Shown: in pieces, positions 7,724 to 38,314 of the stretch
Numbering within the stretch: position 1 is the stretch's first letter
How the letters are laid out: every line of letters begins with the position of its first letter
Assembly (NCBI RefSeq): GCF_011038655.2
Contig: NZ_CP064954.1
Span: forward strand, 1,426,001-1,490,000
Source of the DNA: Corynebacterium lizhenjunii
GTDB taxonomy: Bacteria; Actinomycetota; Actinomycetes; Mycobacteriales; Mycobacteriaceae
DNA: 64,000 nt
Direction of reading: 5' to 3'
Position numbers and translations under genes: made by a program
Notes under the pieces: generated by a model
Seen by the model: the letters and a program-made list of their open reading frames with translations, nothing else
Told to the model about the DNA's origin: nothing
Database searches by the model: none

Positions 7724-8740
7724 TTAGGCCACGGTCAGCGTGGCAACCAGGTTCGGATTCGCCAACACCGGCAGGCCAATAGCCGCAGCCTTAACCCACA
7801 CACCCATCGGGTCCTCCTCCCTGTACGCACCAGCAACAATGCCCGGGCGGTCATCCACAGTAAGCCCATAATTCGGGGCCATTGCTTCCAGAGTAGTGCC
7901 CCAGAACGTAGAGCCCAGCTCCTCAGCATGGTCGGCAGACGGCAGCAGCAGCACCATGTTGTCCGGGATAACCGCCTGCAGGCCTGCCTGCGTACGCACC
8001 TTACGGTCATAGGCAAACAGGCCCGGCAGACCAAAGGAATCCAGCAGGCTATCCACATAGTTACGGTTCACCATCGTGGGGGTGTTACCGGATGCGGTCT
8101 TGCGAATCTCCTCGCTACGAAGCAGCGCGGCCACGGTCTTGCGGGACACCAGAAGGGTACCCGGCTCTACTCCGTTGACAGCGATGTACTTTTCTACCGC
8201 GTCCTGAATATCAGTCAGCGGGGTGGCCCCCGACTCAGTCCACTTCTTCGCCACGTTAATGGTCAGGTCCTCATGGCGGCCAAAGTCAGCCGTAGAATAG
8301 AACCCGTTTTCAAAGATGGAGGCCCCACCCTCGGCCAGGACCTTGCCGCGCGCAAGCTCCATGCGGTCAGCAACCGCCTGGCCTACGCGGATAGCGACCT
8401 TGCCGATGGAATTGCGCACCAGGTCGGAATCTTCCCGGTGGCGCATGCGCAGCTGGTCGTACTCGGACACGCGGATCTTCTGCCCCAATGCCGGCAGGTC
8501 TACGGTCACGTGCTTGCCGCCGGGGGTTGCACCCAGCGGGGTTTCCGCATCGTAGGAGCGGTACTCCGCCACCGGCACCAGGCCGCTTTCCGTTGTCGTC
8601 AGGCGCACCGCAATATCATCGACAGTGCGATTAGGCAGGAACGTTGCCAGGCTCACACGCGTGCGCTCACGTTCTTCAATGCCCACCCGTGCGGCCATGG
8701 TCAGCTCAACTGGGGAGACAATATCAGTCCACAGATTCAT
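7724..8740 (-). CDS. Major capsid protein
   Basis: A 338-residue protein of the HK97-fold/gpE type: N-terminal arm, then an extended region (VPVAEYRSYDAETPLGATPG), a spine helix region, and a C-terminal domain ending in beta strands. The segment TLLVSRKTVAALLRSEEIRK and the late VDDRPGIVAGAYREEDPMG with WVKAAAIGLPVLANPNLV are typical of Phage_cap_E-like capsids that lack a protease-cleaved delta domain. It is preceded by scaffold and decoration genes, consistent with scaffold-assisted assembly. Start ATG at 8740, 3 bases after the decoration gene. Confidence 0.88.
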   Translation of the reverse strand: MNLWTDIVSPVELTMAARVGIEERERTRVSLATFLPNRTVDDIAVRLTTTESGLVPVAEYRSYDAETPLGATPGGKHVTVDLPALGQKIRVSEYDQLRMRHREDSDLVRNSIGKVAIRVGQAVADRMELARGKVLAEGGASIFENGFYSTADFGRHEDLTINVAKKWTESGATPLTDIQDAVEKYIAVNGVEPGTLLVSRKTVAALLRSEEIRKTASGNTPTMVNRNYVDSLLDSFGLPGLFAYDRKVRTQAGLQAVIPDNMVLLLPSADHAEELGSTFWGTTLEAMAPNYGLTVDDRPGIVAGAYREEDPMGVWVKAAAIGLPVLANPNLVATLTVA

Positions 8741-11265: not shown

Positions 11266-12687
11266 CTACACCCCGGAGGAATCACCCCCGGGAACAAACT
11301 CATCATCAGCTGAATCCATCGCCGTTACGGGCTGCTGCTGGCCTGCAGCAAGGGCCGCCACCCGCTCCCGAGCCTGCTGATGGGCCAACTCACGCCGCAT
11401 AATCACCTTCTGCGCCTCCGTAAAATTCAGCATGTCCCACACCACTTCACTGTGCTCAGGCATAATCTTGGCCGCCACAGCCTTAACCATGGCATCCATC
11501 GTCGCCGCCAACGTAGGCGTAGACGCCTCACGCCACACACTCGACACCCCAGCCATCACCTCAGGCGACGGCGGGGCACCGTCCAAAATCGACAAGCACA
11601 CATACGCCAAATCATTAACCAACGCCTTACCAAAAGACACCTGCCGCATCTCCGCACGCTTAACCAGCCGCGACTCCGCAGCACGAATAGCATCCGCAGA
11701 CGCCGGATTATCCGACGTAAACCCCAAATACGCGGCCGGAACACCAGACTGGGCAGACACCAACTGCGCCAACATCCGCAACTCATCAATATAAGGCGCA
11801 GGCGAGGCAGCACTAAACTGGCCAGCCGCAGGATTAGCCTCCCCATCATCCGGATCACCTGGTGGAATGATAAGCGCCTTATTCATCGCCACCTTCCACC
11901 CAAGCTCCAGAATCTCCTGCGCATCGGGGTTCTCACTAGCACCCAACTGCTCCGGGGTGACATTCGTCAGATAGCGCTGTGGTGTGGTGTAGAACTCGCG
12001 GTTGTATTCCATGCCCAAAATGGTGCGCACCCCATGATCCGTGTAATAGCGAATCGCCGGGGTAATCTCCGACCGGCCTCGCGCAGACCCACTACGTGCC
12101 CGATTCGGCAACGCAACCAGCCCACACCGGCCACGATTATGCACCACCCGAGACACCACCGCCTCACCATCCAAGGTGATCGTCTCATCCGGCAAATACA
12201 ATGTTCGGTACTGCTTACCAGACTCATCAGCGCTAACCACCAGACCGGCAGCCATCCGATTGCGCCGCTCATCCCACACGTACGTCGCCTGAGTTGCCGG
12301 CACTGCGTCGACAATGATCTGCTGCTCACCAGCAGCCACATCACCCTGCGAGACCGCCAAGAACCCCACACCAGTAACCAGGGCATCCAAGATTGCCTTA
12401 GAGACCTCAACGTCAAGTTGATTCTGGGCAAACACCACGTGCAGGGCATCAATATCCCCACCAGAGCGCCACCCACCCCACTCGATTCGCTCAGCCAAGG
12501 CGTCCACCACGATTTCCGGCCACCCCACCACCGATTCCACATTCACCAGGGACTCCGGCACCGCAATGCCCATATTCTTCACCCCGGCCTTGCCGTTGTA
12601 GTAGCGCCAACGCAAATCATTCTTCGCCCGGTACCGCGCCAACTGCACACCCAACTGGCCAGCCAAATCCTTAGCATCAACCGTCAT
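11266..12687 (-). CDS. Portal protein (SPP1 gp6-like family)
   Basis: 473 residues. It has the signatures of Phage_prot_Gp6-type portals in actinobacteriophages: an N-terminal RYYNGKAGVKNMGIAVPESL segment, WPEIVVDALAERIEWGGWR, a wing with beta strands, and the channel region with YLGFTSDNPASADAIRAAES followed by a long helix. The C-terminus is Gln/Ala-rich and acidic. It forms the dodecameric DNA entry vertex. The ATG overlaps the terminase stop by 4 bases, and MuF follows. Confidence 0.9.
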   Translation of the reverse strand: MTVDAKDLAGQLGVQLARYRAKNDLRWRYYNGKAGVKNMGIAVPESLVNVESVVGWPEIVVDALAERIEWGGWRSGGDIDALHVVFAQNQLDVEVSKAILDALVTGVGFLAVSQGDVAAGEQQIIVDAVPATQATYVWDERRNRMAAGLVVSADESGKQYRTLYLPDETITLDGEAVVSRVVHNRGRCGLVALPNRARSGSARGRSEITPAIRYYTDHGVRTILGMEYNREFYTTPQRYLTNVTPEQLGASENPDAQEILELGWKVAMNKALIIPPGDPDDGEANPAAGQFSAASPAPYIDELRMLAQLVSAQSGVPAAYLGFTSDNPASADAIRAAESRLVKRAEMRQVSFGKALVNDLAYVCLSILDGAPPSPEVMAGVSSVWREASTPTLAATMDAMVKAVAAKIMPEHSEVVWDMLNFTEAQKVIMRRELAHQQARERVAALAAGQQQPVTAMDSADDEFVPGGDSSGV

Positions 12688-14462
12688 GCCATAATCACCT
12701 TCCTGCGCTTACGAGCCTTACCCCCTACGCGCACCTTGCCCGAGTTCAACGCTTCGCGCCGCCCAACATTGGCCGCAATCATCGCCACACCCAAATCGAC
12801 GAGCTGCGTAGAATCACGCGTCTTCTTACCCACCGTCAAACCGAACTTATTCCAGCGAGTACGCATGTTATTAACATGAGCCACCAAGGCCGGGTCACCA
12901 TCATGACGAAATGGCCCATCCAGGCCCTCATCATCAATCAAAGCTCGCACAATCTCCACCTCCTGCGAAAACTTGCGGTTGCGGTCAGCACCGCCCGGGG
13001 TAGACAACCGCATATCCCACAACACCGCGTTACCATTACGGCCCGGCGTTGCCCATACACGCAGCGACTTCCTGAAATCCCGATGCCAAGAATCAATCAT
13101 CGGACGCCAATACGATGCCTCCGTCGAATCATCCTTCGCCGGGGACGGGTCCACACCAAACCACACAACACGATAAGTGTCCATGACCTCACGCACCCGC
13201 GCATCCACCTCGGCACGGTCCACTAGGAAACCCTCGCCACGCTTGCCGCGGGGGCGCTGCCACACCCCCAACGTCTGGTTGAAGCCGTCACTAATCCGGC
13301 ACCCCATCAGGGCAGTGGCATCCTCCGACTTCGAGCAGTCAAGGAATAGGGCAATTTGGTCTCCCTCCTGGAACACCCTCGCCGGGTCCGCCAAAGCAGC
13401 AAACGCCTGGGCAGCCACATAAGCATCCTCCTGCTCAGCAATGCCATTCAAATAGAACCGGATAGCCTGCGCAGCCGATAACTCAGGGTCTACAATCTCC
13501 GCAGACAAACGCTCAATATCCGCCCACGGCGCATCCGAATACGCCTGACGCAAAGCCAATTCACGCTGCTGCTCATCATAAAAATCAAGGCGCGGATCGT
13601 ACTCAATCGAATCGTAGAGAATATCCTGCTTCAGGTGCGCATACTTGCCTGACACCTGCTGTTGCCACGCAATGAACGACTTTTCACCCACGGACTCACC
13701 ACCCTGGGCATGCGCGTTCGTAAACTCCACAATCCGGGCCTGCAATGCACGCTTCGACTTGCCCACATTACGGCGCCCAACCTCAGCCAGACGCTTACCA
13801 CCGGACGCCTCGGTCATATGGTGAGTCTCGTTGAGCACAACAAACGTTGCCGGGTTACCCTCCGCCGAGCGCTCCGAGGCCGTCAGCACCTCCATGCGGG
13901 CCGCCCCGCCCTTGACGTAGGTCGCGGTCTGGCCCTTATCCAACTGGTAGTAGTCCACAGCCTCGGACCCCAACTGCGAATTAGCCACTCGCAGCAACGC
14001 CTTAGACTGGGCCTCCGAGTTAGAGGCAATCTGCACCAACGGCAACTGATGCCGCTTACCCGTCCAACGTTCACCATCCCACCACAACTGAGACGGGCCC
14101 AAAAGCTCGATATTGCACATCGCCGCAGCTAGGGGGTCCTTCCCGGTTCCTTTTGACCCCCTACGTATTCCACGGCGGTAAATAAACCGACCATCCTCAT
14201 TAAACGCATACCACAGAATCAGAAATCGGGCCTGCCCATCAGTAAACTGCCACGGCTGCCCATCATCGTTAAGCAAACCCGGCTCATCAGTACGCCACTC
14301 CGCCCAATCAATCAACAACGGGCCAAGCGAATTCTCCAACAAAGCCAGCTTCTGCCCCTGGTCCTGCGGCCACGGCAACGTCATCCACTGCCCCAACTCG
14401 CCACGCTGATACCCCGGCGGCAACAACAAATTAGAGCCTTGCGAACCGTTCATTAGCTTCAA
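12684..14462 (-). CDS. Terminase large subunit
   Basis: 592 residues with the two terminase engines visible. The ATPase has a Walker A-like RRGSKGTGKDP at 100-110 and Walker B FVVLNETHH at 207-215. The C-terminal RNase H-like nuclease opens with ALFLDCSKSED (Asp 375) and continues with WFGVDPSPAKDD. It packages DNA into procapsids at the portal and cuts concatemers. It overlaps the small terminase gene by 32 bases, and the portal gene by 4. A second ATG at codon 4 is possible. The coding strand is G/T-rich, unlike the early genes. Confidence 0.93.
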   Translation of the reverse strand: MKLMNGSQGSNLLLPPGYQRGELGQWMTLPWPQDQGQKLALLENSLGPLLIDWAEWRTDEPGLLNDDGQPWQFTDGQARFLILWYAFNEDGRFIYRRGIRRGSKGTGKDPLAAAMCNIELLGPSQLWWDGERWTGKRHQLPLVQIASNSEAQSKALLRVANSQLGSEAVDYYQLDKGQTATYVKGGAARMEVLTASERSAEGNPATFVVLNETHHMTEASGGKRLAEVGRRNVGKSKRALQARIVEFTNAHAQGGESVGEKSFIAWQQQVSGKYAHLKQDILYDSIEYDPRLDFYDEQQRELALRQAYSDAPWADIERLSAEIVDPELSAAQAIRFYLNGIAEQEDAYVAAQAFAALADPARVFQEGDQIALFLDCSKSEDATALMGCRISDGFNQTLGVWQRPRGKRGEGFLVDRAEVDARVREVMDTYRVVWFGVDPSPAKDDSTEASYWRPMIDSWHRDFRKSLRVWATPGRNGNAVLWDMRLSTPGGADRNRKFSQEVEIVRALIDDEGLDGPFRHDGDPALVAHVNNMRTRWNKFGLTVGKKTRDSTQLVDLGVAMIAANVGRREALNSGKVRVGGKARKRRKVIMA

Positions 14463-17519: not shown

Positions 17520-17927
17520 TTAGGTGGTGGGGGTGATGGTGCATTTGACGCCGGTCCATCCGGTGGGGTGGTAGCGTTTGCTGATTGTCCAGTCGGTGAT
17601 GCGGGCGTCGTCTTTGATGATTCTGGCTTGGGTGAGGGCGTCGCCTAGGGCGCGGGCTAGTTTGTCGAGGTCTGGGGTGACTGCGGGGTGGGGGAATTTT
17701 GGTTTTTGGGGTTTTGGCATGTAGAAGGTGGCTGTGATGTGTAGGGGTTGGTTGAGTGGGGGTCCTTTGTATTGGTTGCGCATGTGGAGTATGAGGGTGT
17801 TGCGCCAGGTGGGGAGTTTTTTGGATTGTTCTATCATGCGGCCGTTGCCGATGTGGCGTTTGCTGCCTTGGGGGGCGGGGTGGCCTTGGATGTGGAGGTG
17901 GATGGGGGGTGTGTTGGTCTCATTCAT
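17520..17927 (-). CDS. RusA-like Holliday junction resolvase
   Basis: 135 residues with the RusA pattern: a GHPAPQGSKRHIGNGRMIEQ loop, the WRNTLILHM helix, a strand ending in MPKPQKPKFP, then PDLDKLARALGDALTQARII followed by KDDARITDW, containing the catalytic acidic residues. RusA cuts four-way junctions arising in phage replication and recombination, matching the nearby RecT and exonuclease genes. First gene of a minus-strand run whose start faces the plus-strand cassette at 17.95 kb. Confidence 0.88.
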   Translation of the reverse strand: MNETNTPPIHLHIQGHPAPQGSKRHIGNGRMIEQSKKLPTWRNTLILHMRNQYKGPPLNQPLHITATFYMPKPQKPKFPHPAVTPDLDKLARALGDALTQARIIKDDARITDWTISKRYHPTGWTGVKCTITPTT

Positions 17928-17941
17928 TCTTAGCGCCTAAC

Positions 17942-17970
17942 TTGACGTACGTCTAATATGCTGTATAATG
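17942..17970 (+). promoter_or_regulatory. Promoter of small-gene cassette 1
   Basis: TTGACG, a 16-base spacer and TATAAT, followed after 25 bases by an ATG with AAAGGAGGTG upstream. Close to consensus for a housekeeping sigma factor, and pointing away from the RusA gene. Confidence 0.7.
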
Positions 17971-17993
17971 GGAGGTATGAAAGGAGGTGAACA

Positions 17994-18116
17994 ATGGAAA
18001 CGATAAAGGAACTGCTCCTCACCCTCATTGGTGTATATCTCGCACTCAGCGCAGACCGCCGCGCCTGGTACAAAGCCAAGCACCGCACCAACAAGGAGAA
18101 GCCAGAAAACAAGTAG
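17994..18116 (+). CDS. Small membrane peptide, cassette 1 first gene
   Basis: A 40-residue peptide: METIKELLLTLIGVYLALSA is one amphipathic/hydrophobic span, followed by a strongly basic tail rich in Arg and Lys. A strong GGAGGTG site lies 6 bases upstream. A nine-codon frame (17978) overlaps its start and could modulate translation. The counterpart at 36512 has the same position and topology but almost no sequence identity. It could be a leader peptide, a type I toxin-like peptide or a membrane effector; nothing decides this. Confidence 0.6.
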   Translation: METIKELLLTLIGVYLALSADRRAWYKAKHRTNKEKPENK

Positions 18117-18118
18117 CA

Positions 18119-18166
18119 CCCCTGGTTCTGGAAGTACCAACCATCCAGAACCGGGGGCGCTGCCCC
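18119..18166 (+). other. Double-hairpin RNA element, cassette 1
   Basis: Immediately after the first cassette gene, CCCC-T-GGTTCTGGA pairs with TCCAGAACC-GGGG; the same G run can instead pair with downstream GCCCC (GGGGC GCT GCCCC). The two stems compete for the G run. An element with the same GGTTCT/AGAACC core and the same overlapping second stem stands in the same place in cassette 2. It may be a terminator, an attenuator or a processing site. Confidence 0.55.
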
Positions 18167-18189
18167 TCAAATCTAACACGGAGGAACCC

Positions 18190-18330
18190 ATGTCAAACAA
18201 AGAAGACCTACTACTAGCAGCCCTAGGGATAGCCCTAATCTGCCTATCCGCAGGCCCCATACTCGCCATTGGCGTCGCCACCATATTGGCCATATCGGCC
18301 TACCTGCGTCACCGCAAGGCAGGCAAATAA
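18190..18330 (+). CDS. Small membrane protein, cassette 1 second gene
   Basis: A 46-residue protein with a long hydrophobic core (LLLAALGIALICLSAGPILA then IGVATILAISAYLR), enough for one long or two short spans, ending in HRKAGK. CGGAGGAA precedes the ATG. Its stop overlaps the start of the HTH gene (TAATG), so the two are translationally coupled, exactly as in cassette 2. Confidence 0.65.
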   Translation: MSNKEDLLLAALGIALICLSAGPILAIGVATILAISAYLRHRKAGK

Positions 18331-18551
18331 TGCGCCCGGGATTCATCGACTGGGACACCAACCGGGAACTGTGGCCCGCCGAACAGTGCGCAGCACATTG
18401 CGGGATTGTGCGCTCAACATGGACCACATACGTCGCCCGTGGCCAAGCCCCCGCCTCGGTTGCGCGCTTTCATGGCACAACACTGTGGAGTGCCAGTGAA
18501 GTTACCGCATGGCATGCAGCCCGCCCCTCACAAGACAGGAACGCAGACTAG
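18330..18551 (+). CDS. HTH protein (excisionase-like), cassette 1 third gene
   Basis: 73 residues: a CAAHCGIVRSTWTTYVARGQ helix-turn-helix with PA and W-S-ASEV wing, as in Xis/AlpA-like DNA-binding proteins. It is a clear paralogue of the 75-residue protein at 36794: both share DT-RELW, CAAHCGI, STWTTY, the wing and the AWHAARP ending, about half of all positions. This copy has no integrase beside it, so excision is unlikely to be its job; it might regulate the cassette or compete for the other copy's sites. Confidence 0.7.
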   Translation: MRPGFIDWDTNRELWPAEQCAAHCGIVRSTWTTYVARGQAPASVARFHGTTLWSASEVTAWHAARPSQDRNAD

Positions 18552-22479: not shown

Positions 22480-22965
22480 CTAAAAGGGTGGTTGTTCAGA
22501 CCCCTGCCCAAACCCACCAACACCAGACTGGCCACCAACAGGGGCAGGCTCACCCCACCCACCAGAATCCGACCCGCCGCCACCATCAGACTGCGAGCCC
22601 ACAGACTGCGAGCCACCAGAGGCAGCAGCAGGAAGCACCGCCACATCCACCGCCTCAATCCGCAACCGCGACCGCTTCGCCCCCGTAGCCTTATCCTGCC
22701 ACCGGTCCAACACCAACTTGCCAGACACCATCACCGGCCGACGCCCACCACGCATAGCCTCAACAAAATTCTGAGCCTTCTTACGCCACAACGTCACCGG
22801 CACAAACACCGCACCATCCTGGTCCTGCACCCACGAATTCGTCGACGCATCCCACTGCGACTGATTATGCGCCACCGTAAACGACACCAGCGGAGTGCCA
22901 TCACTGGTATACCGCAACACCGGATCCTCAGTCAGATTGCCACTAATCACCACATGATTAGCCAT
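22480..22965 (-). CDS. ssb: Single-stranded DNA-binding protein
   Basis: 161 residues starting MANHVVISGNLTEDPVLRYT, the standard SSB opening; the ATG at 22965 is chosen over a longer frame because it matches the family. The OB fold (SFTVAHNQSQW, FVPVTLWRKKAQNFVEAMRG, VMVSGKLVLDRWQDKATGAK) is followed by a Gly/Ser/Gln-rich tail ending EQPPF, a protein-recruiting tip without the usual run of acidic residues. It overlaps the RecT gene by 8 bases and acts with it in recombination and replication. Confidence 0.9.
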   Translation of the reverse strand: MANHVVISGNLTEDPVLRYTSDGTPLVSFTVAHNQSQWDASTNSWVQDQDGAVFVPVTLWRKKAQNFVEAMRGGRRPVMVSGKLVLDRWQDKATGAKRSRLRIEAVDVAVLPAAASGGSQSVGSQSDGGGGSDSGGWGEPAPVGGQSGVGGFGQGSEQPPF

Positions 22966-23782
22966 CAGCCTGCCCCTTATCTTCTGGCGTGGACAGGGCC
23001 GTCCAGCGGGAATTAGCAAACGCCGCCAATTCCTTATACTCACCATCCGGCAGGCCAGCATCACGCACCTGCCCCATCAGCTCCTCCAATCCGGCAATAT
23101 CCTCCACCGCAGCGAGCTCACCCAACCAGTCCCGCCCCTGTGTTTCCACCGGGGCCGCAGCAGCCGACGCCGTGGGCTGGTCGGTACGAACCGCCGTCAT
23201 CTTCACCGGCTCCAACTCCAATTCCTCCCGGGTGTAGGCGATACCCAGCAGCACATCCGGGGCCAACTTACGGCACACCTCAGACGCCGCTTTGGCGTAC
23301 AGCATCGCCTGCGGGTCCGTCAGGTACTTCTTGTTCGTGGTGTACCCGGCCTTCTTTGCGCGCTCAATCGTCCACGATGAGCGTTCCTGCTCGCCCCGCG
23401 GGCTTACCCCCTCCACGGTGACAACCTCATCGGTGGACTCCACCGTAGAAAACCGGTACCCCTTAGCCTTCAACAGTGCCACCATGGTGCGGGCATAGAT
23501 AGCGGGCTTGCCATGGACAACAAACACCTGCTGGAGGGCCTGCTGTGGTTTCAGGCCAATTTCAGCCCCGTACAGGATTGCGGCCGCCCCATCATCCGGC
23601 TTGCCGCGAAACCCGGCGGGCACCATCTCCGTGTTGCACAGCACCTTGGCCAACCGGTGGGCTGCTTCCATGCCTTCTGCCTGGCGCACGATGTCCGCCA
23701 CACTATCATTGGTCAACTCCGGCACCCCCACCATATCCGTCAGCGTGTTGTTGTTGGTGGTGGCTAGTTCAGTGTTCGACAT
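22958..23782 (-). CDS. RecT-like single-strand annealing protein
   Basis: 274 residues with the RecT pattern: LCNTEMVPAGFRGKPDDGAA, AAILYGAEIGLKPQQALQQV with FVVHGKPAIYARTM, the LKAKGYRF block and ARKAGY-like segments, then a LTDPQAMLYAKAASEVCRKL helix typical of the family. It anneals complementary ssDNA left by the partner exonuclease (24016-24939). Together they form a lambda Red-like recombination pair. The C-terminal 70 residues are a variable tail. First codon at 23782 shares a base with the preceding stop. Confidence 0.85.
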   Translation of the reverse strand: MSNTELATTNNNTLTDMVGVPELTNDSVADIVRQAEGMEAAHRLAKVLCNTEMVPAGFRGKPDDGAAAILYGAEIGLKPQQALQQVFVVHGKPAIYARTMVALLKAKGYRFSTVESTDEVVTVEGVSPRGEQERSSWTIERAKKAGYTTNKKYLTDPQAMLYAKAASEVCRKLAPDVLLGIAYTREELELEPVKMTAVRTDQPTASAAAAPVETQGRDWLGELAAVEDIAGLEELMGQVRDAGLPDGEYKELAAFANSRWTALSTPEDKGQADG

Positions 23783-24015: not shown

Positions 24016-24939
24016 TTAGTCCTTTCCTTTCGTCAGTCGCACAGTGGTGTATGCGGCCTTTTTCTTCTGGTACTGGGCCACCAAATCCGGGTGGTCCTTT
24101 TTAAACCTGGTGGTGTCAAACGTGGTTGATTCCGCAACCTGACTCACCGACAATTTGTATCCGGCCACTGTGGAAGCATGCGCCCCACCAGTCAAAGCGA
24201 TGATGTCAGCCTTGGCCTTATCAGCAATGGCCTTGTAGTGCTTGGCGTGCTCATCAGCCCGCGCCAATGATTCCACCAGGCCGGTGAGCTCATCAAGACC
24301 ATCCAGGCCCAAGTCCTCACCCATCCACCCGGGCCGGGTGTCTTGCTCCACCCACGCGAACCACTCCCGTGCCGTCGCCGCCAGGGCATCGATGACCTCC
24401 TGGTTGGGGATAATCACCCGCCGTTCACACCGATACGGCACAAACCGGCCATCATCTTCCTGGTAGTACTCCACCACCAAGATGCATGCTTCGGCCCCCG
24501 TGTGCCACAGATTCGCCTGGCATTGCAGATAGTATTGGTCCGGGCACCACGGGTGAAACTTCCCGCCAATAAACTCATGCTTGGACGTCTTGCACTCCCC
24601 AATGACCTTAATGACCCCATCCTCATCACTGAACAGGTCCGGGGTGCCACACAGGCGGTCATCATCCGGGTTAATCACAATGACCTGGGGGTTATCGTTA
24701 TACAGCAGGCGTGAATCCAAACCCTGGGCTATGGCGGCGATCTCCGGTTCACGCGCATGACCCCATGCGGTGTACTGATTGCCCGTCATGGCCTTTATCC
24801 CGGTGTCTTTCTCGTCGCGCAGGTTCTGCCAATGGCGCACCGTACGATTTAGGTGCAATCCTGCGACTTCTGTGGCTGTGAGCCTGGCCCTACGAAACGC
24901 CAACCAATCATCTTGCGTTTCCGGCGTGTACGTCTTCAC
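24016..24939 (-). CDS. YqaJ-type recombination exonuclease
   Basis: 307 residues from a GTG at 24939, preferred because AGGAGGAGG lies just upstream and the codon overlaps the preceding stop (GTGA). YqaJ/lambda exonuclease features are present: DWLAFRRARLTATEVAGL at the start, the PD-(D/E)xK core GTPDLFSDEDGVIKVIGECK, then PDQYYLQCQANLWHTGAEAC. It processively degrades one strand of duplex DNA, supplying tails for the RecT protein. The C-terminal helical region (ADEHAKHYKAIADKAKADII) is typical. Confidence 0.88.
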   Translation of the reverse strand: MKTYTPETQDDWLAFRRARLTATEVAGLHLNRTVRHWQNLRDEKDTGIKAMTGNQYTAWGHAREPEIAAIAQGLDSRLLYNDNPQVIVINPDDDRLCGTPDLFSDEDGVIKVIGECKTSKHEFIGGKFHPWCPDQYYLQCQANLWHTGAEACILVVEYYQEDDGRFVPYRCERRVIIPNQEVIDALAATAREWFAWVEQDTRPGWMGEDLGLDGLDELTGLVESLARADEHAKHYKAIADKAKADIIALTGGAHASTVAGYKLSVSQVAESTTFDTTRFKKDHPDLVAQYQKKKAAYTTVRLTKGKD

Positions 24940-25217
24940 GCACTCCTCCTCCTGTTGTTTGTGTTCTTGGTTCGCATGGTCACCGCAAAGTTCTGGGCGT
25001 GCTCCACACAAAACTTCAACCCCTCCAAAGGCTCAAACACCGCTTGGCGTGGGCAATCCTCAAAATGGCAATCCTGGCCCCACAGGGACCTGGCCCGGGC
25101 CTGCTCCACGACTCGCAACATGTCCCGGGCATTTTCCCTACCCACAGCAACCTGGGTCAATGGCCCGCAATGGACCAGCACCAACCCACCGTCGAGGTCT
25201 TCTATCCGCATGGTCAT
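24936..25217 (-). CDS. Small protein with Cys/His cluster
   Basis: 93 residues beginning MTMRIEDLDGGLVLVHCGPL; the ATG at 25217 overlaps the preceding gene's stop (ATGA), and the stop overlaps the exonuclease start. A CHFEDCPRQAVF...FCVEH segment holds three Cys and two His that could bind zinc. Coupling on both sides suggests a role in the exonuclease/RecT module, but the function is unknown. Confidence 0.55.
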   Translation of the reverse strand: MTMRIEDLDGGLVLVHCGPLTQVAVGRENARDMLRVVEQARARSLWGQDCHFEDCPRQAVFEPLEGLKFCVEHAQNFAVTMRTKNTNNRRRSA

Positions 25218-28764: not shown

Positions 28765-28841
28765 TGGTGCTTGTGCCCGGCCTCGAACCGGGGGCCTCCC
28801 CGTTATGAGCGGGGTGCTCTAACCAACTGAGCTACACAAGC
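28765..28841 (-). tRNA. Phage tRNA with CAU anticodon, CCA encoded
   Basis: A complete cloverleaf on the minus strand: acceptor GCTTGTG/CACAAGC, D-arm GAGCTC-like GCTCAGTTGGTTAGAGC, anticodon stem CCCCG/CGGGG with loop CTCATAA, T-arm CCCGG TTCGAGG CCGGG, discriminator A and encoded CCA. Anticodon CAT means elongator Met or, after lysidine modification, Ile(AUA). The encoded CCA and lone position in the early region are usual for phage tRNAs. Confidence 0.88.
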
Positions 28842-31523: not shown

Positions 31524-32312
31524 CTAGGCTGCCTGCTCTGTGGTGAGGGTGAATCGTCCGTCCATGAATCGGGATACAAAGTACTCCTGGCCTTTGCCGG
31601 TTACCTTCGGTGTTTTTGACACTGTGACGTGCCCATCAGAGTGCGTGACAGCGGTTTCCTTAACCTTGAACAAGCCGAGTTCCATGGCGCGCTGGGTGGG
31701 CATATTCCAATCCGCACCCTTACGCTTAATGAGGTAGCCATTCTCACGCAGCCAGGCAAACAGGCGTTTTTGCCCAACCTCAAAACCATTACCCTTGAGA
31801 AGCTTCGCAAGGTCACCAACCAGGATCGTTGTTGTGGAGGTGGATACCGCGTCCGCGAACAACACTTTCGGCTTATCCGCCTTAGCCTGCTGCTCCAACA
31901 CCGCGCGGGCCTGCCGCTCCTGCTTCAACTCAGTCGCCAACCGGATAATAAAATCCGGATCCGTCAAGGCCTGCTCCGCCGCCTCCGGAGTGAGATACCC
32001 ACCCCGCCTACGAATCGACGGCAACACCTCATGAGTCACCCAACGCTTAAACTCACGAGCTTCAGGCTTACGACTGCGGAGGATAGCGGAGTAGAGACCA
32101 GACTCAGTGATGACAGTGACTTGCTGGTCACCGCCAGGGGTACGCATAATGTGCGTACCCTTTTCATCTTCATCAAGCGAGCGGGTCATGTCCGGGGCCA
32201 TGCGGTAGCCGAGCACTTTGGCAACATCGCTGGCGATCCAGCGTGGTTCTCCATCCTCAGCTATGAGGACACGAACTTGGTTGCCTTGGAAATTAAACGG
32301 TTCAATACTCAT
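31524..32312 (-). CDS. Phage antirepressor (BRO-N/KilA-C-like)
   Basis: 262 residues. The N-terminal BRO domain is recognisable (FNFQGNQVRVLIAEDGEPRW, ASDVAKVLGYR, GLYSAILRSRKPEAREFKRW with VTHEVLPSIRRRGGY). A linker leads to a C-terminal KilAC-like domain (LAKLLKGNGFEVGQKRLFAW then LRENGYLIKRKGADWNMPTQ). Proteins of this type counteract the CI repressor on induction. It is the first long gene after the Cro-like gene in the early operon. Confidence 0.88.
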   Translation of the reverse strand: MSIEPFNFQGNQVRVLIAEDGEPRWIASDVAKVLGYRMAPDMTRSLDEDEKGTHIMRTPGGDQQVTVITESGLYSAILRSRKPEAREFKRWVTHEVLPSIRRRGGYLTPEAAEQALTDPDFIIRLATELKQERQARAVLEQQAKADKPKVLFADAVSTSTTTILVGDLAKLLKGNGFEVGQKRLFAWLRENGYLIKRKGADWNMPTQRAMELGLFKVKETAVTHSDGHVTVSKTPKVTGKGQEYFVSRFMDGRFTLTTEQAA

Positions 32313-33976: not shown

Positions 33977-34987
33977 ATGCCCACAGCAAACCACCGCCTC
34001 AAAACCCTCCGCCTCATCAACGGCATGAACCAAGGCGACTTCGCAAACATCCTCGGCATCAAGCAACCACTCCTATCCATGATCGAACGAGGAGACCGCG
34101 AACTAACCACCAACCACATCGTAACCGCCCGAATGTACTTCCGACTGCCTGCCGACTACTTCGACAAACCGGAAATCACCTACCAACCGAACCAACTCAA
34201 CTTCCGCCGCAAAAAACTCACCAAAAACCAAGCCACCATGGCCGCCCACACCTTCGGCCTCATCGAACAACACTACGCAGACCAACCCAACCCCCTTCAG
34301 GAGTTCCCCTGCACCCCAACACCGACCCGACGAAGCACCAAAGACATCGAAGCCATTGCCGCCGATACCCGCGCCCAACTCGGAATTAAGCCTGATACGC
34401 CTATCCGCAATGTCACACGCTGCATGGACCGGTTGGGGATCATCGTCACAGCACTGGCTAACCCCCTACTTCCCGCAGACAAGATTGATGGAATTTCCAC
34501 ACCCGCGCAGACCGGACACGCGTTAGTGACAACCCTTAACTACAGCACCCCGGGGGATCGTTTTCGGTTTTCCGCAGCCCACGAGTTGGGGCATGTTCTG
34601 CTGCACACAAACGACGAGGTGAAGTCTCTCGAGGATAAAGAGGCTGAGGCTGATGATTTTGCGGCGGCTTTCCTTATGCCTGCTGGACCTATGCGTGACT
34701 TGCTAACTGCAGATTTGACGCTGAATGGTTATGCCGCTGTTAAGTCGAAATGGGGTACTTCTATCCAGGCGCTCGTTCGCCGTGCTCGCGATTTGGGCGT
34801 TATCGATGATGATCGGTATCGGTCTTTGTTTATCCAGTTGAGTGGGCGGGGGTGGCGGACACGGGAACCTGTGGAAGTACAGCTTGAGAGTATGATTCAT
34901 CAGCCGCCTGAGTTGTGGATTGCGCATGCTGGGCGCAGGGATGGGCCGGGTTTGGCGTCTGTTACGCAGTTACCGCGTCGTGAGTAG
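33977..34987 (+). CDS. XRE-ImmA/IrrE metallopeptidase (candidate antitoxin/regulator)
   Basis: 336 residues. N-terminal XRE HTH (RLKTLRLINGMNQGDFANIL then IKQPLLSMIERGDRELTTNH) is followed by a domain with zinc peptidase motif RFSAAHELGHVLLHTNDEVK (HExxH) and an EAEADDFAAAFLMPAGPMRD downstream ligand. Such proteins act as regulatory proteases or antitoxins. The HTH can bind the palindromes upstream. C/A-rich codon use gives way to G/T-rich use from about 34,550. AAGGAGG precedes the ATG at 33977. Confidence 0.85.
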   Translation: MPTANHRLKTLRLINGMNQGDFANILGIKQPLLSMIERGDRELTTNHIVTARMYFRLPADYFDKPEITYQPNQLNFRRKKLTKNQATMAAHTFGLIEQHYADQPNPLQEFPCTPTPTRRSTKDIEAIAADTRAQLGIKPDTPIRNVTRCMDRLGIIVTALANPLLPADKIDGISTPAQTGHALVTTLNYSTPGDRFRFSAAHELGHVLLHTNDEVKSLEDKEAEADDFAAAFLMPAGPMRDLLTADLTLNGYAAVKSKWGTSIQALVRRARDLGVIDDDRYRSLFIQLSGRGWRTREPVEVQLESMIHQPPELWIAHAGRRDGPGLASVTQLPRRE

Positions 34988-36450: not shown

Positions 36451-36480
36451 TTGACAAGTAGCGGCCTAGTGCGCTATTAT
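36451..36480 (+). promoter_or_regulatory. Promoter of small-gene cassette 2
   Basis: TTGACA, an 18-base spacer and TATTAT, then GAAAGGAGGTG and the ATG at 36512. Almost perfect -35. It matches the arrangement of the cassette 1 promoter at 17,952-17,979. Confidence 0.75.
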
Positions 36481-36511
36481 GGGTGTGTACCCAACGAAAG
36501 GAGGTGACACC

Positions 36512-36583
36512 ATGTACGCCAACATCATCGCCACACTCTCACTAATCATGATGATCATCATCTGGCTCGACACCAGGAACTAA
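36512..36583 (+). CDS. 23-residue membrane peptide, cassette 2 first gene
   Basis: MYANIIATLSLIMMIIIWLD and TRN: one membrane span with a charged end. Strong ribosome site AAAGGAGGTG. It holds the position of the 40-residue peptide in cassette 1 but is shorter and different in sequence. Size, hydrophobicity and strong promoter resemble type I toxin peptides; an antisense RNA would be needed to support that. Confidence 0.55.
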   Translation: MYANIIATLSLIMMIIIWLDTRN

Positions 36584-36588
36584 GACCA

Positions 36589-36636
36589 CCCCGGTTCTAA
36601 ATGTCCTTATCATTCAGAACCGGGGGGCAACCCCCC
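36589..36636 (+). other. Double-hairpin RNA element, cassette 2
   Basis: CCCCGGTTCT (36589-36598) pairs with AGAACCGGGG (36616-36625), and the G run 36622-36627 can instead pair with CCCCCC at 36631-36636. Same core GGTTCT/AGAACC, same competing second stem and same place as the cassette 1 element. Confidence 0.6.
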
Positions 36637-36665
36637 ACCCTACCCCACAAACAAGGAAAACCGCC

Positions 36666-36794
36666 ATGCAATTCACTCTCACAGGGCTCGCCGTAGCCAC
36701 CATCATGCTCATCGCCGGGGCCTCCCCCTTCTTTTTCCCGGCATTCATCGCCCTAGGGCTTGCCATCGACCACAACCGAAAGGACACCCATTAA
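36666..36794 (+). CDS. Small membrane protein, cassette 2 second gene
   Basis: 42 residues, hydrophobic (LTGLAVATIMLIAGASPFFF then PAFIALGLAIDHNRK). Its stop overlaps the start of the HTH gene in TAATG, the same one-base overlap as in cassette 1. Likely a membrane protein co-expressed with the HTH protein. Confidence 0.6.
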   Translation: MQFTLTGLAVATIMLIAGASPFFFPAFIALGLAIDHNRKDTH

Positions 36795-37021
36795 TGCGCC
36801 CCATCATCACCGACGCAGACACCGGCCGCGAACTCTGGCGCGTCAAAGAATGCGCCGCTCATTGCGGCATCAAACCCTCCACCTGGACCACCTACACCGC
36901 CCAAGGCCGCACACCTGCCCCCATCGCCCACTTTGACCAACGCACACCCGTCTGGGACGCCGCAGAAGTCAAGGCCTGGCACGCGGCCCGGCCCGGCAGC
37001 CCCACACAACTCAGACGCTAA
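36794..37021 (+). CDS. HTH protein (excisionase-like), cassette 2 third gene
   Basis: 75 residues: CAAHCGIKPSTWTTYTAQGR is the helix-turn-helix, FDQRTPVWDAAEVKAWHAAR the wing and end. About half of the positions match the paralogue at 18330. It is directly upstream (213 bases) of the integrase and in the same orientation, so it is the best candidate for the recombination directionality factor, Xis. AlpA/HTH_17-like family by pattern. Confidence 0.72.
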   Translation: MRPIITDADTGRELWRVKECAAHCGIKPSTWTTYTAQGRTPAPIAHFDQRTPVWDAAEVKAWHAARPGSPTQLRR

Positions 37022-37234: not shown

Positions 37235-38314
37235 ATGGCATGCATCAAAAAATACGCCACCGCCACAGGCCACGCCTGGCGCGTCCAATACCGCTCACCC
37301 GACGGACGCAGCCGCACCAAACAAGGCTTCCGCACCAAAGCCCAAGCCCAAGCCTGGGCAGAAACCAACGCCGCCACCATACACACCGGCGGGTGGGTCG
37401 ACCCCAACGCAGGCACAATCACCGTAGGCGAACTAGGCGAGCAATGGCTAAGCATGCAAACCCACCTCAAACCCAAAACCATGCACAACACCCGCCAGAT
37501 ATGGCGCAACCACGTACACCCCGCATGGGGAACACGCCCAATCGGTGACATCCTGCCGTCTGAAGTGCAATCATGGGTGGCAAACATAGGCCGCGGCGCG
37601 TCACTGGTACGGCAAGCCCACGCGCTGCTTGCCCAAATTCTTGACATGGCAGTGCGGGACGGACGCATTAAGGCGAACCCGGCGCGTGGGGTCCGCCTGC
37701 CCTCGAAGCCCCGGGGGGCGAAGGTGTATCTCACGGCGGGGCAGCTGGCGCGGCTTGCGGGTGAGTGTTCAAAGCATTCTGAATTGGTGTGGCTGCTGGG
37801 TACGGTGGGGTTGCGTTGGGGTGAGGCTGCGGCGTTGCGTGTGCGTGATGTCAATGTTGTTCGTCAGCGTATTTCGGTGGAGCGGAATGCGGTGACGATT
37901 GGGTCTGAGATTGCGATTGGTACGCCTAAGACGCATGAGCGGCGCGAGGTGGCTGTTCCGGCTGTGGTGATGGGGCGGTTGAGGCCTCTGCTTGAGGGTA
38001 AGGGGCCGGATGCGTTGCTGTGGGCGCGTGCGGATGGGTCGCCGTTGCGGTTGCCGTCTAGTGGGGATTGGTATTACCGGGCGTTGGGGAGGGTTCAGGA
38101 GGCGGATCCTGATTTTCCGCGTGTGACTCCGCATGGTTTGCGGCATGTTGCGGCTGGGTTGATGGTGTCTAGTGGTGCGAATGTGAAGGTTGTTCAGCGT
38201 CAGCTTGGGCATGCGAGCGCGGCTATGACCCTGGATATTTATGCTGATTTGTTCGATGGGGACCTGGACGAGGTGGGCCGGAGCATGGATGTGCTGATTT
38301 CGCGCGCTGTTTAA
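37235..38314 (+). CDS. int: Tyrosine site-specific integrase
   Basis: 359 residues with arm-binding, SAM-like and catalytic domains: N-terminal YRSPDGRSRTKQGFRTKAQA, core LGTVGLRWGEAAALRVRDVN (Arg I), PHGLRHVAAGLMVSSGANVK (His-x-x-Arg), RQLGHASAAMTLDIYADLF (His and the tyrosine in IYADL). It catalyses integration at the tRNA site 68 bases downstream of its stop. AAAGGAG precedes the ATG at 37235. Coding composition changes from C/A-rich to G/T-rich around 37,640, an internal seam. Confidence 0.94.
   Translation: MACIKKYATATGHAWRVQYRSPDGRSRTKQGFRTKAQAQAWAETNAATIHTGGWVDPNAGTITVGELGEQWLSMQTHLKPKTMHNTRQIWRNHVHPAWGTRPIGDILPSEVQSWVANIGRGASLVRQAHALLAQILDMAVRDGRIKANPARGVRLPSKPRGAKVYLTAGQLARLAGECSKHSELVWLLGTVGLRWGEAAALRVRDVNVVRQRISVERNAVTIGSEIAIGTPKTHERREVAVPAVVMGRLRPLLEGKGPDALLWARADGSPLRLPSSGDWYYRALGRVQEADPDFPRVTPHGLRHVAAGLMVSSGANVKVVQRQLGHASAAMTLDIYADLFDGDLDEVGRSMDVLISRAV

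What the first reader, a model, noticed from the sequence alone, without database searches (positions are those of the whole stretch)
17942..18551. Cassette 1: membrane peptide, double hairpin, membrane protein, HTH protein
A strong promoter drives three tiny genes with a competing double hairpin after the first one. The arrangement is repeated at 36.4-37.0 kb with paralogous HTH proteins, an identical TAATG overlap and the same hairpin core, yet the membrane peptides diverge. Selection seems to keep the architecture rather than the peptide sequences, as in toxin-antitoxin, exclusion or attenuation modules. This looks like an undescribed prophage module.
Basis: partly seen in the sequence, partly recalled or inferred. 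Interest (0 to 1): 0.8.

Follow-up and report, generated by a model that had tools for sequence, protein, structure and literature searches.

The report
Self-regulated prophage membrane-peptide cassette with RNA hairpin
Prophages of corynebacteria and their relatives carry a small, repeatedly reused gene cassette (two tiny membrane peptides, a hairpin and a DNA-binding protein) whose DNA-binding protein seems to control its own promoter and whose hairpin may encode a short antisense RNA.

Summary
Cassettes 1 (17942-18551) and 2 (36451-37021) belong to a widespread family in Corynebacterium prophages, also in Rhodococcus phage REQ2 and Gordonia phage Finkle. Of 61 non-redundant HTH copies with an abutting hydrophobic ORF2, 48 have a hairpin better than all 20 shuffles; similar stems differ mainly by compensatory changes (315 both-sided, still paired; null mean 56).

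(1) The promoter carries an 18-bp dyad at a fixed place against the -10; its half-sites vary with the recognition stretch of the cassette's own HTH protein, not with the hairpin (r 0.69, n=28; r 0.61, n=20 non-redundant). The HTH is very probably an autoregulator. (2) On the other strand the hairpin has a U-rich tail and a -10-like TANNNT beside it (each 18 of 19 non-redundant copies), as for a ~50-60-nt antisense RNA. That part lacks a -35 and is unproven.

Best reading: a lysogenically oriented 'moron' operon under dual control, repressor plus probable antisense RNA, in the logic of pMV158 CopG/RNAII. What the peptides do (toxin, exclusion) is inference.

The parts
17942..17969 (+). Cassette 1 promoter (-35 TTGACG, 16-nt spacer, -10 TATAAT)
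17948..17965 (.). Cassette 1 operator dyad TACGTC-N6-GCTGTA (4 of 6 pairs) ending on the first two bases of the -10
   Evidence: Dyad at this fixed offset in 31 of 42 promoters (>=4 of 6 pairs); co-varies with HTH; only exact match to its pattern in the window
17994..18116 (+). ORF1, 40-aa hydrophobic peptide with basic tail (by eye, one membrane segment)
   Evidence: the protein search returned only itself
18113..18163 (+). Hairpin 1 with 7-nt loop 18135-18141 (TACCAAC)
18154..18166 (+). Competing mini-hairpin GGGGC-GCT-GCCCC
18100..18175 (-). Predicted antisense RNA unit: -10-like TAGATT 18175-18170, start near 18164, hairpin as terminator, U-rich tail
   Evidence: (terminator-like site 18139-18114 minus); inferred
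18190..18330 (+). ORF2, 46-aa hydrophobic peptide (by eye, two membrane segments), stop overlaps HTH start (TAATG)
18330..18551 (+). HTH protein of AlpA/Xis winged-helix type
   Evidence: for its operator
36451..36480 (+). Cassette 2 promoter (TTGACA, 18-nt spacer, TATTAT)
36459..36476 (.). Cassette 2 operator dyad TAGCGG-N6-GCGCTA (5 of 6 pairs)
36512..36583 (+). Cassette 2 ORF1, 23-aa hydrophobic peptide
   Evidence: one search lists the frame from an earlier ATG at 36479
36589..36625 (+). Cassette 2 hairpin 1, 7-nt loop 36604-36610 (TCCTTAT); competing mini-hairpin 36622-36636
36637..36642 (-). Cassette 2 antisense -10-like TAGGGT
   Evidence: inferred promoter
36666..36794 (+). Cassette 2 ORF2, 42 aa
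36794..37021 (+). Cassette 2 HTH protein; winged helix predicted, mean pLDDT 85
37235..38314 (+). Tyrosine integrase next to cassette 2 (context, not a constant part)

Best explanation
A phage-borne 'moron' operon placed on the lysogenic strand. Its strong promoter is repressed by its own AlpA-like winged-helix HTH protein, which binds as a dimer to an 18-bp dyad between -35 and -10 (well supported by co-variation; binding itself not shown, and repression rather than activation is assumed). The segment between ORF1 and ORF2 also encodes, on the other strand, a short antisense RNA (about 50-60 nt: start just past the hairpin, the hairpin as its intrinsic terminator) that pairs with the mRNA through its variable 7-nt loop and lowers expression of the membrane peptides (inferred). 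The peptides probably act at the host membrane, as a toxin or as exclusion of other phages, which is why they are held under two independent brakes (inferred). Operator and loop both differ between copies, so copies in one cell would not cross-regulate (inferred).
For: Operator: mean 4.24 of 6 dyad pairs at the fixed offset against 1.05-2.24 at 28 shifted offsets; 31 of 42 promoters with >=4. Half-sites vs recognition stretch r=0.69, p=0.0002, n=28; 0.58 after removing the rest of the HTH and ORF2; vs hairpin stem 0.04 n.s.; one per HTH cluster, no dyad filter, n=20: 0.61 and 0.59, p=0.0002. Pattern seen: KPSTWTTY-AQGRTP with TAGCGN; NY-ANxRTP mostly with TAACGY (exceptions L109, L052); VARxQAP with TACAGC-like sites; WRSYAR with TAGCAC (two copies). 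The recognition stretch contains predicted helix 28-36. Hairpin: 315 compensated changes vs null mean 56, maximum 79. In the scan that left loop size free, 33 of 47 strong hairpins have a 7-nt loop, 5 have 11 and 4 have 5. Antisense: minus TANNNT 2-26 nt past the hairpin 47 of 54 (shuffle mean 19.7, maximum 28), 18 of 19 non-redundant (maximum 13), the same pattern on the sense strand in 7 of 54; >=5 T of 12 after the hairpin on minus 51 of 57, on plus 0 of 57. Loop change on a constant stem: REQ2 TAGGTCG vs L139 CTCGTAA with the same predicted ORF1 and stem. Lysogenic strand.
Against: No conserved -35 for the antisense promoter, and the -10-like motif is often TAGTGT, so it could be a conserved sense motif. 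Another control pattern, A...AA, is also frequent there (38 of 54), probably from the ORF2 ribosome site. Part of the minus-strand U-richness comes from the ORF1 coding end (control stretch 4.6 of 12 T vs 6.1). The loop is not shown to change faster than neutral: over 82 stem-similar pairs loop identity is 0.53, but the ungapped 36 nt before the hairpin is 0.41 and the ORF2 start 0.48. The strand test was inconclusive: over 12 bp, clusters with A.C 10, with G.U 11; antisense hairpin more stable in 15 of 21 clusters (sign test p=0.08, Wilcoxon p=0.04), and perfect-complement controls already leaned that way (12 vs 9). ORF1 was recognised in only 29 of 61 hairpin copies, and L136 has promoter, ORF2 and HTH without ORF1 or hairpin. 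Operator also correlates weakly with ORF2 (0.24), as shared descent would give. 21 of 63 copies searched gave no promoter under my thresholds, and 11 of 42 promoters have a dyad below 4, Finkle among them. No expression data.
Confidence: 0.47

Rival explanations
1. Autoregulated operon with a sense-strand translational switch: a ribosome ending ORF1 covers the 5' arm, the freed GGGG arm pairs with the downstream CCCC, and expression of ORF2-HTH is coupled to ORF1 translation. No antisense RNA.
For: ORF1 stop lies -4 to +10 nt from the hairpin arm in 26 of 26 copies with a recognised ORF1 (the ORF1 search itself only admitted stops from -11 to +22 nt); second hairpin in 46 of 56.
Against: No sense terminator (0 of 57 U-rich); by inspection neither hairpin covers the ORF2 Shine-Dalgarno; does not explain the minus-strand TANNNT and U tail.
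Confidence: 0.23
2. The hairpin is only a stability or insulation element (mRNA 3'-end block for ORF1, or a terminator against lytic transcription from the other strand); loop variation is neutral.
For: Very stable hairpin, minus-strand U tail, cassettes opposite to lytic genes in the neighbourhoods read; loop no more variable than the ungapped upstream flank.
Against: Preferred 7-nt loop, A at loop position 6 in 48 of 57, and TANNNT beside it in 18 of 19 are not needed for that.
Confidence: 0.22
3. The HTH is the phage excisionase and the cassette is part of the integration module.
For: PHROG excisionase/regulator matches; cassette 2 ends 213 bp before the integrase gene; PDB AlpA match 8c3t E=0.005.
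Against: Integrase found in the fetched flank of only 15 of 61 copies (one query, short flanks) plus three more by PHROGs (L124, L127, L131), a lower bound; REQ2 has a separately annotated excisionase and RDF; cassette 1 lies between RusA and other minus-strand genes.
Confidence: 0.05

Closest known systems
pMV158 copG-rnaII-repB control module (PMC4485353, passages seen)
   Same: Repressor gene inside the operon it controls; short (48-nt) antisense RNA from the intergenic region, one hairpin, read against the operon just before the next gene.
   Different: CopG is ribbon-helix-helix (recalled), here an AlpA/Xis-type winged helix; controlled genes are membrane peptides, not a replication gene; repressor gene is last, not first; antisense RNA here unproven.
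par pAD1 / Fst type I toxin-antitoxin (PMC7472228, passages seen)
   Same: Tiny hydrophobic peptide with charged tail; convergent short antisense RNA whose terminator loop would start pairing.
   Different: No Pfam family match of the two ORF1 peptides; no sense-strand terminator; extra ORF2 and own HTH regulator.
Prophage morons and prophage exclusion genes, e.g. CarolAnn gp43/gp44 and Sbash gp31/gp30 (PMC6426606, passages seen)
   Same: Lysogenically expressed genes that include a membrane protein; own promoter in Sbash.
   Different: CarolAnn proteins are 178 and 370 aa and likened to RexAB; no hairpin or HTH autoregulator in the passages seen.
Rhodococcus phage REQ2 gp33-gp32-gp31 and Gordonia phage Finkle gp39-gp38-gp37
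   Same: Same cassette: peptide, 7-nt-loop hairpin, hydrophobic peptide, HTH, 4-nt ORF2/HTH overlap; full dyad promoter in REQ2.
   Different: Annotated only as hypothetical, membrane and DNA-binding proteins; Finkle dyad not found (1 of 6 pairs).

Membership tests
Prophage moron | Own promoter, extra gene(s) between phage genes, oriented against the lytic genes | tested here: met
   Window cassette 1, L126, L133, L035 and REQ2: cassette opposite to the neighbouring structural, lysis or early genes. Finkle: same strand as repressor and integrase, opposite to the antirepressor, immediate neighbours mixed. Selected neighbourhoods, not a census; others listed have same-strand neighbours that I mostly did not identify. 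Promoter found in 42 of 63 copies searched.
Autoregulated operon | Operon product recognises its own promoter | tested here: met
   Comparative only; binding not testable here
pMV158-type dual control | Short antisense RNA in the intergenic region | tested here: inconclusive
   Minus TANNNT and U tail 18 of 19 each; no -35; strand test weak
pMV158-type dual control | Controls a replication gene | tested here: not met
   No replication gene among the three cassette genes; ORF1 and ORF2 are hydrophobic and without a significant family match
Type I toxin-antitoxin | Small hydrophobic toxic peptide | not testable with these tools
Type I toxin-antitoxin | Antisense RNA antitoxin | tested here: inconclusive
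   As for the pMV158 row
Fst/par | Bidirectional terminator and Fst family match | tested here: not met
   0 of 57 sense-strand U tails; no Pfam match of the two window ORF1 peptides
Transcription attenuator | Sense-strand intrinsic terminator versus antiterminator | tested here: not met
   Alternative hairpins exist but no U tail
Excisionase (Xis/RDF) | Constant partner of an integrase gene | tested here: inconclusive
   15 of 61 by one query plus three by PHROGs; short flanks, so a lower bound; REQ2 has other excisionase/RDF genes
AlpA/MerR-like winged helix | HTH plus wing fold | tested here: met
   Model with helices 17-24, 28-36, strands 45-47 and 51-55, helix 56-65; PDB AlpA 8c3t E=0.005 by sequence; Pfam HTH_17 only E=0.22, below cut-off; structure search not run
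Known RNA family | Rfam match at gathering score | tested here: not met
   Only the tRNA in the window

The most novel reading that the evidence does not exclude
A phage module family with plasmid-style incompatibility logic: each copy carries its own repressor/operator pair and its own kissing antisense RNA, both diversified by selection, so that a resident prophage would silence only an incoming copy of the same specificity while unlike copies coexist, with the membrane peptides as the penalty or exclusion effector when control fails.
Probability: 0.22. Interest if true: 0.82.

Novelty: new variant of a known kind. Interest (0 to 1): 0.62.

Why it matters
It gives testable functions to genes annotated 'hypothetical', 'membrane protein' or 'helix-turn-helix' in corynebacterial prophages and in two sequenced phages, supplies a readable protein-DNA recognition pattern for a small AlpA-like family, and points to a possible actinobacterial antisense RNA system that one strand-specific RNA experiment on a phage such as REQ2 or Finkle could confirm or kill.

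Tried and rejected
Rejected or left weak: sense-strand terminator/attenuator; HTH as obligate excisionase (lower bound only); known RNA family; RexAB-like system, by the CarolAnn passages; PADLOC mad1 match (5.8e-5 for the cassette 1 HTH, 0.012 for cassette 2) taken as a generic HTH resemblance. Other operator sites in the window: no clear excess at <=2 mismatches (15 vs 9.1 expected; 9 vs 10.1). The A.C versus G.U strand test looked promising over all copies (20 vs 6 in the 10 loop-proximal pairs) but vanished after clustering and at 12 bp. Loop 'hypervariability' as an argument for kissing is weaker than I first thought (the ungapped upstream flank varies as much or more); I lowered the antisense odds to about 0.5, the main statement to 0.47 and the novel case to 0.22 for that. 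Different loops within one genome are uninformative because identical loops are rare anyway. The ORF1 protein search returned only itself; the search needs shared 5-residue words, so distant relatives are not excluded. My first translate searches were off by one base and were replaced; the wrong frame was also used and is P0001. Fold comparison was not run: machine busy.

Rows dropped or choices made: one search kept 54 of 106 copies by hand; one search kept 69 copies with ORF2, 61 non-redundant, the 69 including three of the chromosomal-looking class; one search scanned only for 7-nt loops, so its 61 of 78 does not itself show the loop size; one search used 57 of 61 (L024, L045, L072, L138 out as doubtful or duplicate); one search used 57 of 61 (L024, L045, L138, L132 out); searches used 56 (L072 also out); one search dropped L138, L132, L100 and promoters with dyad below 4 (28 of 42 kept), repeated without the dyad filter. 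Several of the 12 close pairs come from the same trio (L107, L108, L109). One search listed only part of the matches of 137 of 242 genomes; about 130 stretches were fetched, mostly in order of score, some skipped.

Full report
WHAT IS THERE. The window is a segment of one Corynebacterium chromosome (G000, 2.61 Mb; genus by its matches) that holds prophage genes: major head 7724-8740, portal 11266-12687, terminase 12684-14462, RusA 17520-17927, RecT 22958-23782, RecE 24016-25011 and an antirepressor 31524-32312 on the minus strand; a transcriptional-regulator match 33977-34987 and a tyrosine integrase 37235-38314 on the plus strand. Prophage ends were not determined. Both cassettes lie on the plus strand, against the lytic genes. 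Coordinates of every part are in the parts list.

FAMILY. A two-sequence HTH profile matched 137 of 242 Corynebacterium genomes; the window's own genome has six matches. A wider profile matched 33 of 397 genomes drawn from the order at E<=1e-8, weakly outside the genus. Named hosts among 23 loci include C. aurimucosum, C. striatum, C. macginleyi, C. propinquum and C. mastitidis. The protein search gave 160 relatives, 120 listed; those with a name are 'hypothetical', 'helix-turn-helix' or similar, two as AlpA-type regulators, and they include Dietzia, Rhodococcus and Prescottella. Two classes exist: cassette-type copies and a chromosomal-looking class (36 of 146 copies) whose upstream regions mostly have weak hairpins. 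Among annotated phages, tblastn finds five records: Finkle (two), REQ2 (two) and PSonyx. REQ2 gp33-gp32-gp31 and Finkle gp39-gp38-gp37 are complete cassettes; PSonyx shows no tiny gene before the HTH in its annotation (sequence not examined).

ARCHITECTURE. Of 78 HTH copies with an abutting hydrophobic ORF2, 61 have a hairpin of score >=12 in a scan limited to 7-nt loops, and 29 of those an ORF1 under strict rules. In the scan with free loop size, 48 of 61 non-redundant copies beat all 20 shuffles, and of 47 strong hairpins 33 have a 7-nt loop, 5 have 11, 4 have 5 and 5 have other sizes; loops of 11 and 5 can by eye be read as 7 with a mismatch. ORF1 ends -4 to +10 nt from the hairpin in the 26 copies where it was recognised (the search admitted -11 to +22); ORF2 and HTH overlap by 4 nt in 28, by 1 nt in 10 and by 11 nt in 9 of 56. 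L136 has promoter, ORF2 and HTH without ORF1 or hairpin by inspection, so ORF1 plus hairpin looks separable.

HAIRPIN. Because each hairpin was chosen for complementarity, raw covariation would be circular. I therefore compared 223 pairs of stems that already share 14-19 of 20 bases: 315 positions changed on both sides and still pair, 64 changed on both and do not, 35 changed on one side and still pair, 194 changed on one side and do not; with right-arm changes relocated at random the first number is 56 on average and at most 79 in 200 trials (pairs are not independent). In 12 close pairs (nearly identical stem, ORF2 start >=82% identical) the loop differs in 11; REQ2 and its IMG/VR relative L139 have the same predicted ORF1 peptide and stem but loops TAGGTCG and CTCGTAA. 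But loop change is not shown to be faster than that of other non-stem sequence: over 82 stem-similar pairs the loop is 0.53 identical, the ungapped 36 nt before the hairpin 0.41, the ORF2 start 0.48. Loop position 6 is A in 48 of 57.

AUTOREGULATION. In 42 promoters (of 63 copies searched) located by -35/-10 alone, an 18-bp dyad (half-site 6, spacer 6, half-site 6) ends on the first two bases of the -10: 4.24 of 6 pairs on average against 1.05-2.24 at other offsets. Part of this, the last TA, is fixed by the -10 itself; the rest is not. Half-site distance follows the HTH recognition stretch (Mantel 0.69; 0.58 given the rest of the HTH and ORF2), not the hairpin (0.04), and the result stands in 20 HTH-cluster representatives without selecting for dyads (0.61; 0.59 given the rest). 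The model of the protein is a winged helix whose second helix (28-36) is in that stretch. This is the firmest result and is comparative, not biochemical.

ANTISENSE RNA. On the minus strand, 2-26 nt past the hairpin, TANNNT occurs in 47 of 54 copies (shuffle mean 19.7, maximum 28) and in 18 of 19 non-redundant copies (mean 6.3, maximum 13); the sense strand shows it in 7 of 54, though the unrelated pattern A...AA reaches 38 of 54. After the hairpin the minus strand has >=5 T of 12 in 51 of 57 copies, the plus strand in 0 of 57. This is the layout of pMV158 RNAII (48 nt, intergenic, against the operon, with repressor CopG; PMC4485353, passages). Against: no -35, the ORF1 end contributes to the U tail (4.6 of 12 in a control stretch vs 6.1), and the strand-stability test was inconclusive. 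I give the antisense RNA about 0.5 and autoregulation about 0.85; the combined statement gets 0.47. The membrane toxin or exclusion role rests only on peptide type and moron-like position.

LITERATURE. Eight searches of the open-access library returned no listing that by title or abstract start describes this cassette; two of them returned zero papers. Subscription papers are not covered. PMC4485353, PMC6426606 and PMC7472228 were seen in passages; PMC9476905 (Finkle genome) only as a listing with the start of its abstract. That CopG is ribbon-helix-helix is recalled.

Noticed in passing
L063, L131, L132, L035, L047, L029 (5' leader after the cassette promoter): A second hairpin in the mRNA leader has the identical 9-nt loop GGTGAGAGA on different stems (AGTGAGAGA in L059); not found in either window cassette. 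Looks like a further RNA element, perhaps protein-binding.
   Followed up: partly
L107, L109, L108, L017, L027, L217: Two HTH genes, mostly whole cassettes, in tandem; L101 has two ORF2-like genes before one HTH (by inspection): the units seem to shuffle as modules.
   Followed up: partly
L036 (window genome 1551074): Copy with the same ORF2 peptide as cassette 2 but ORF1 reduced to its 3' end by inspection; hairpin, ORF2 and HTH intact.
   Followed up: partly
L040, L025, L039: Copies that lost the hairpin also show a damaged ORF1 or altered Shine-Dalgarno spacing by inspection; would fit a toxin/antitoxin dependence but n is 3 and it was not tested.
   Followed up: no
window 28765-28841: tRNA-Met gene on the minus strand between prophage-type genes.
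   Followed up: no
Corynebacterium genomes, e.g. L055, L083: A chromosomal-looking relative of the HTH (SGTARGTFTSYAGRG) without cassette is common in the copies fetched.
   Followed up: no
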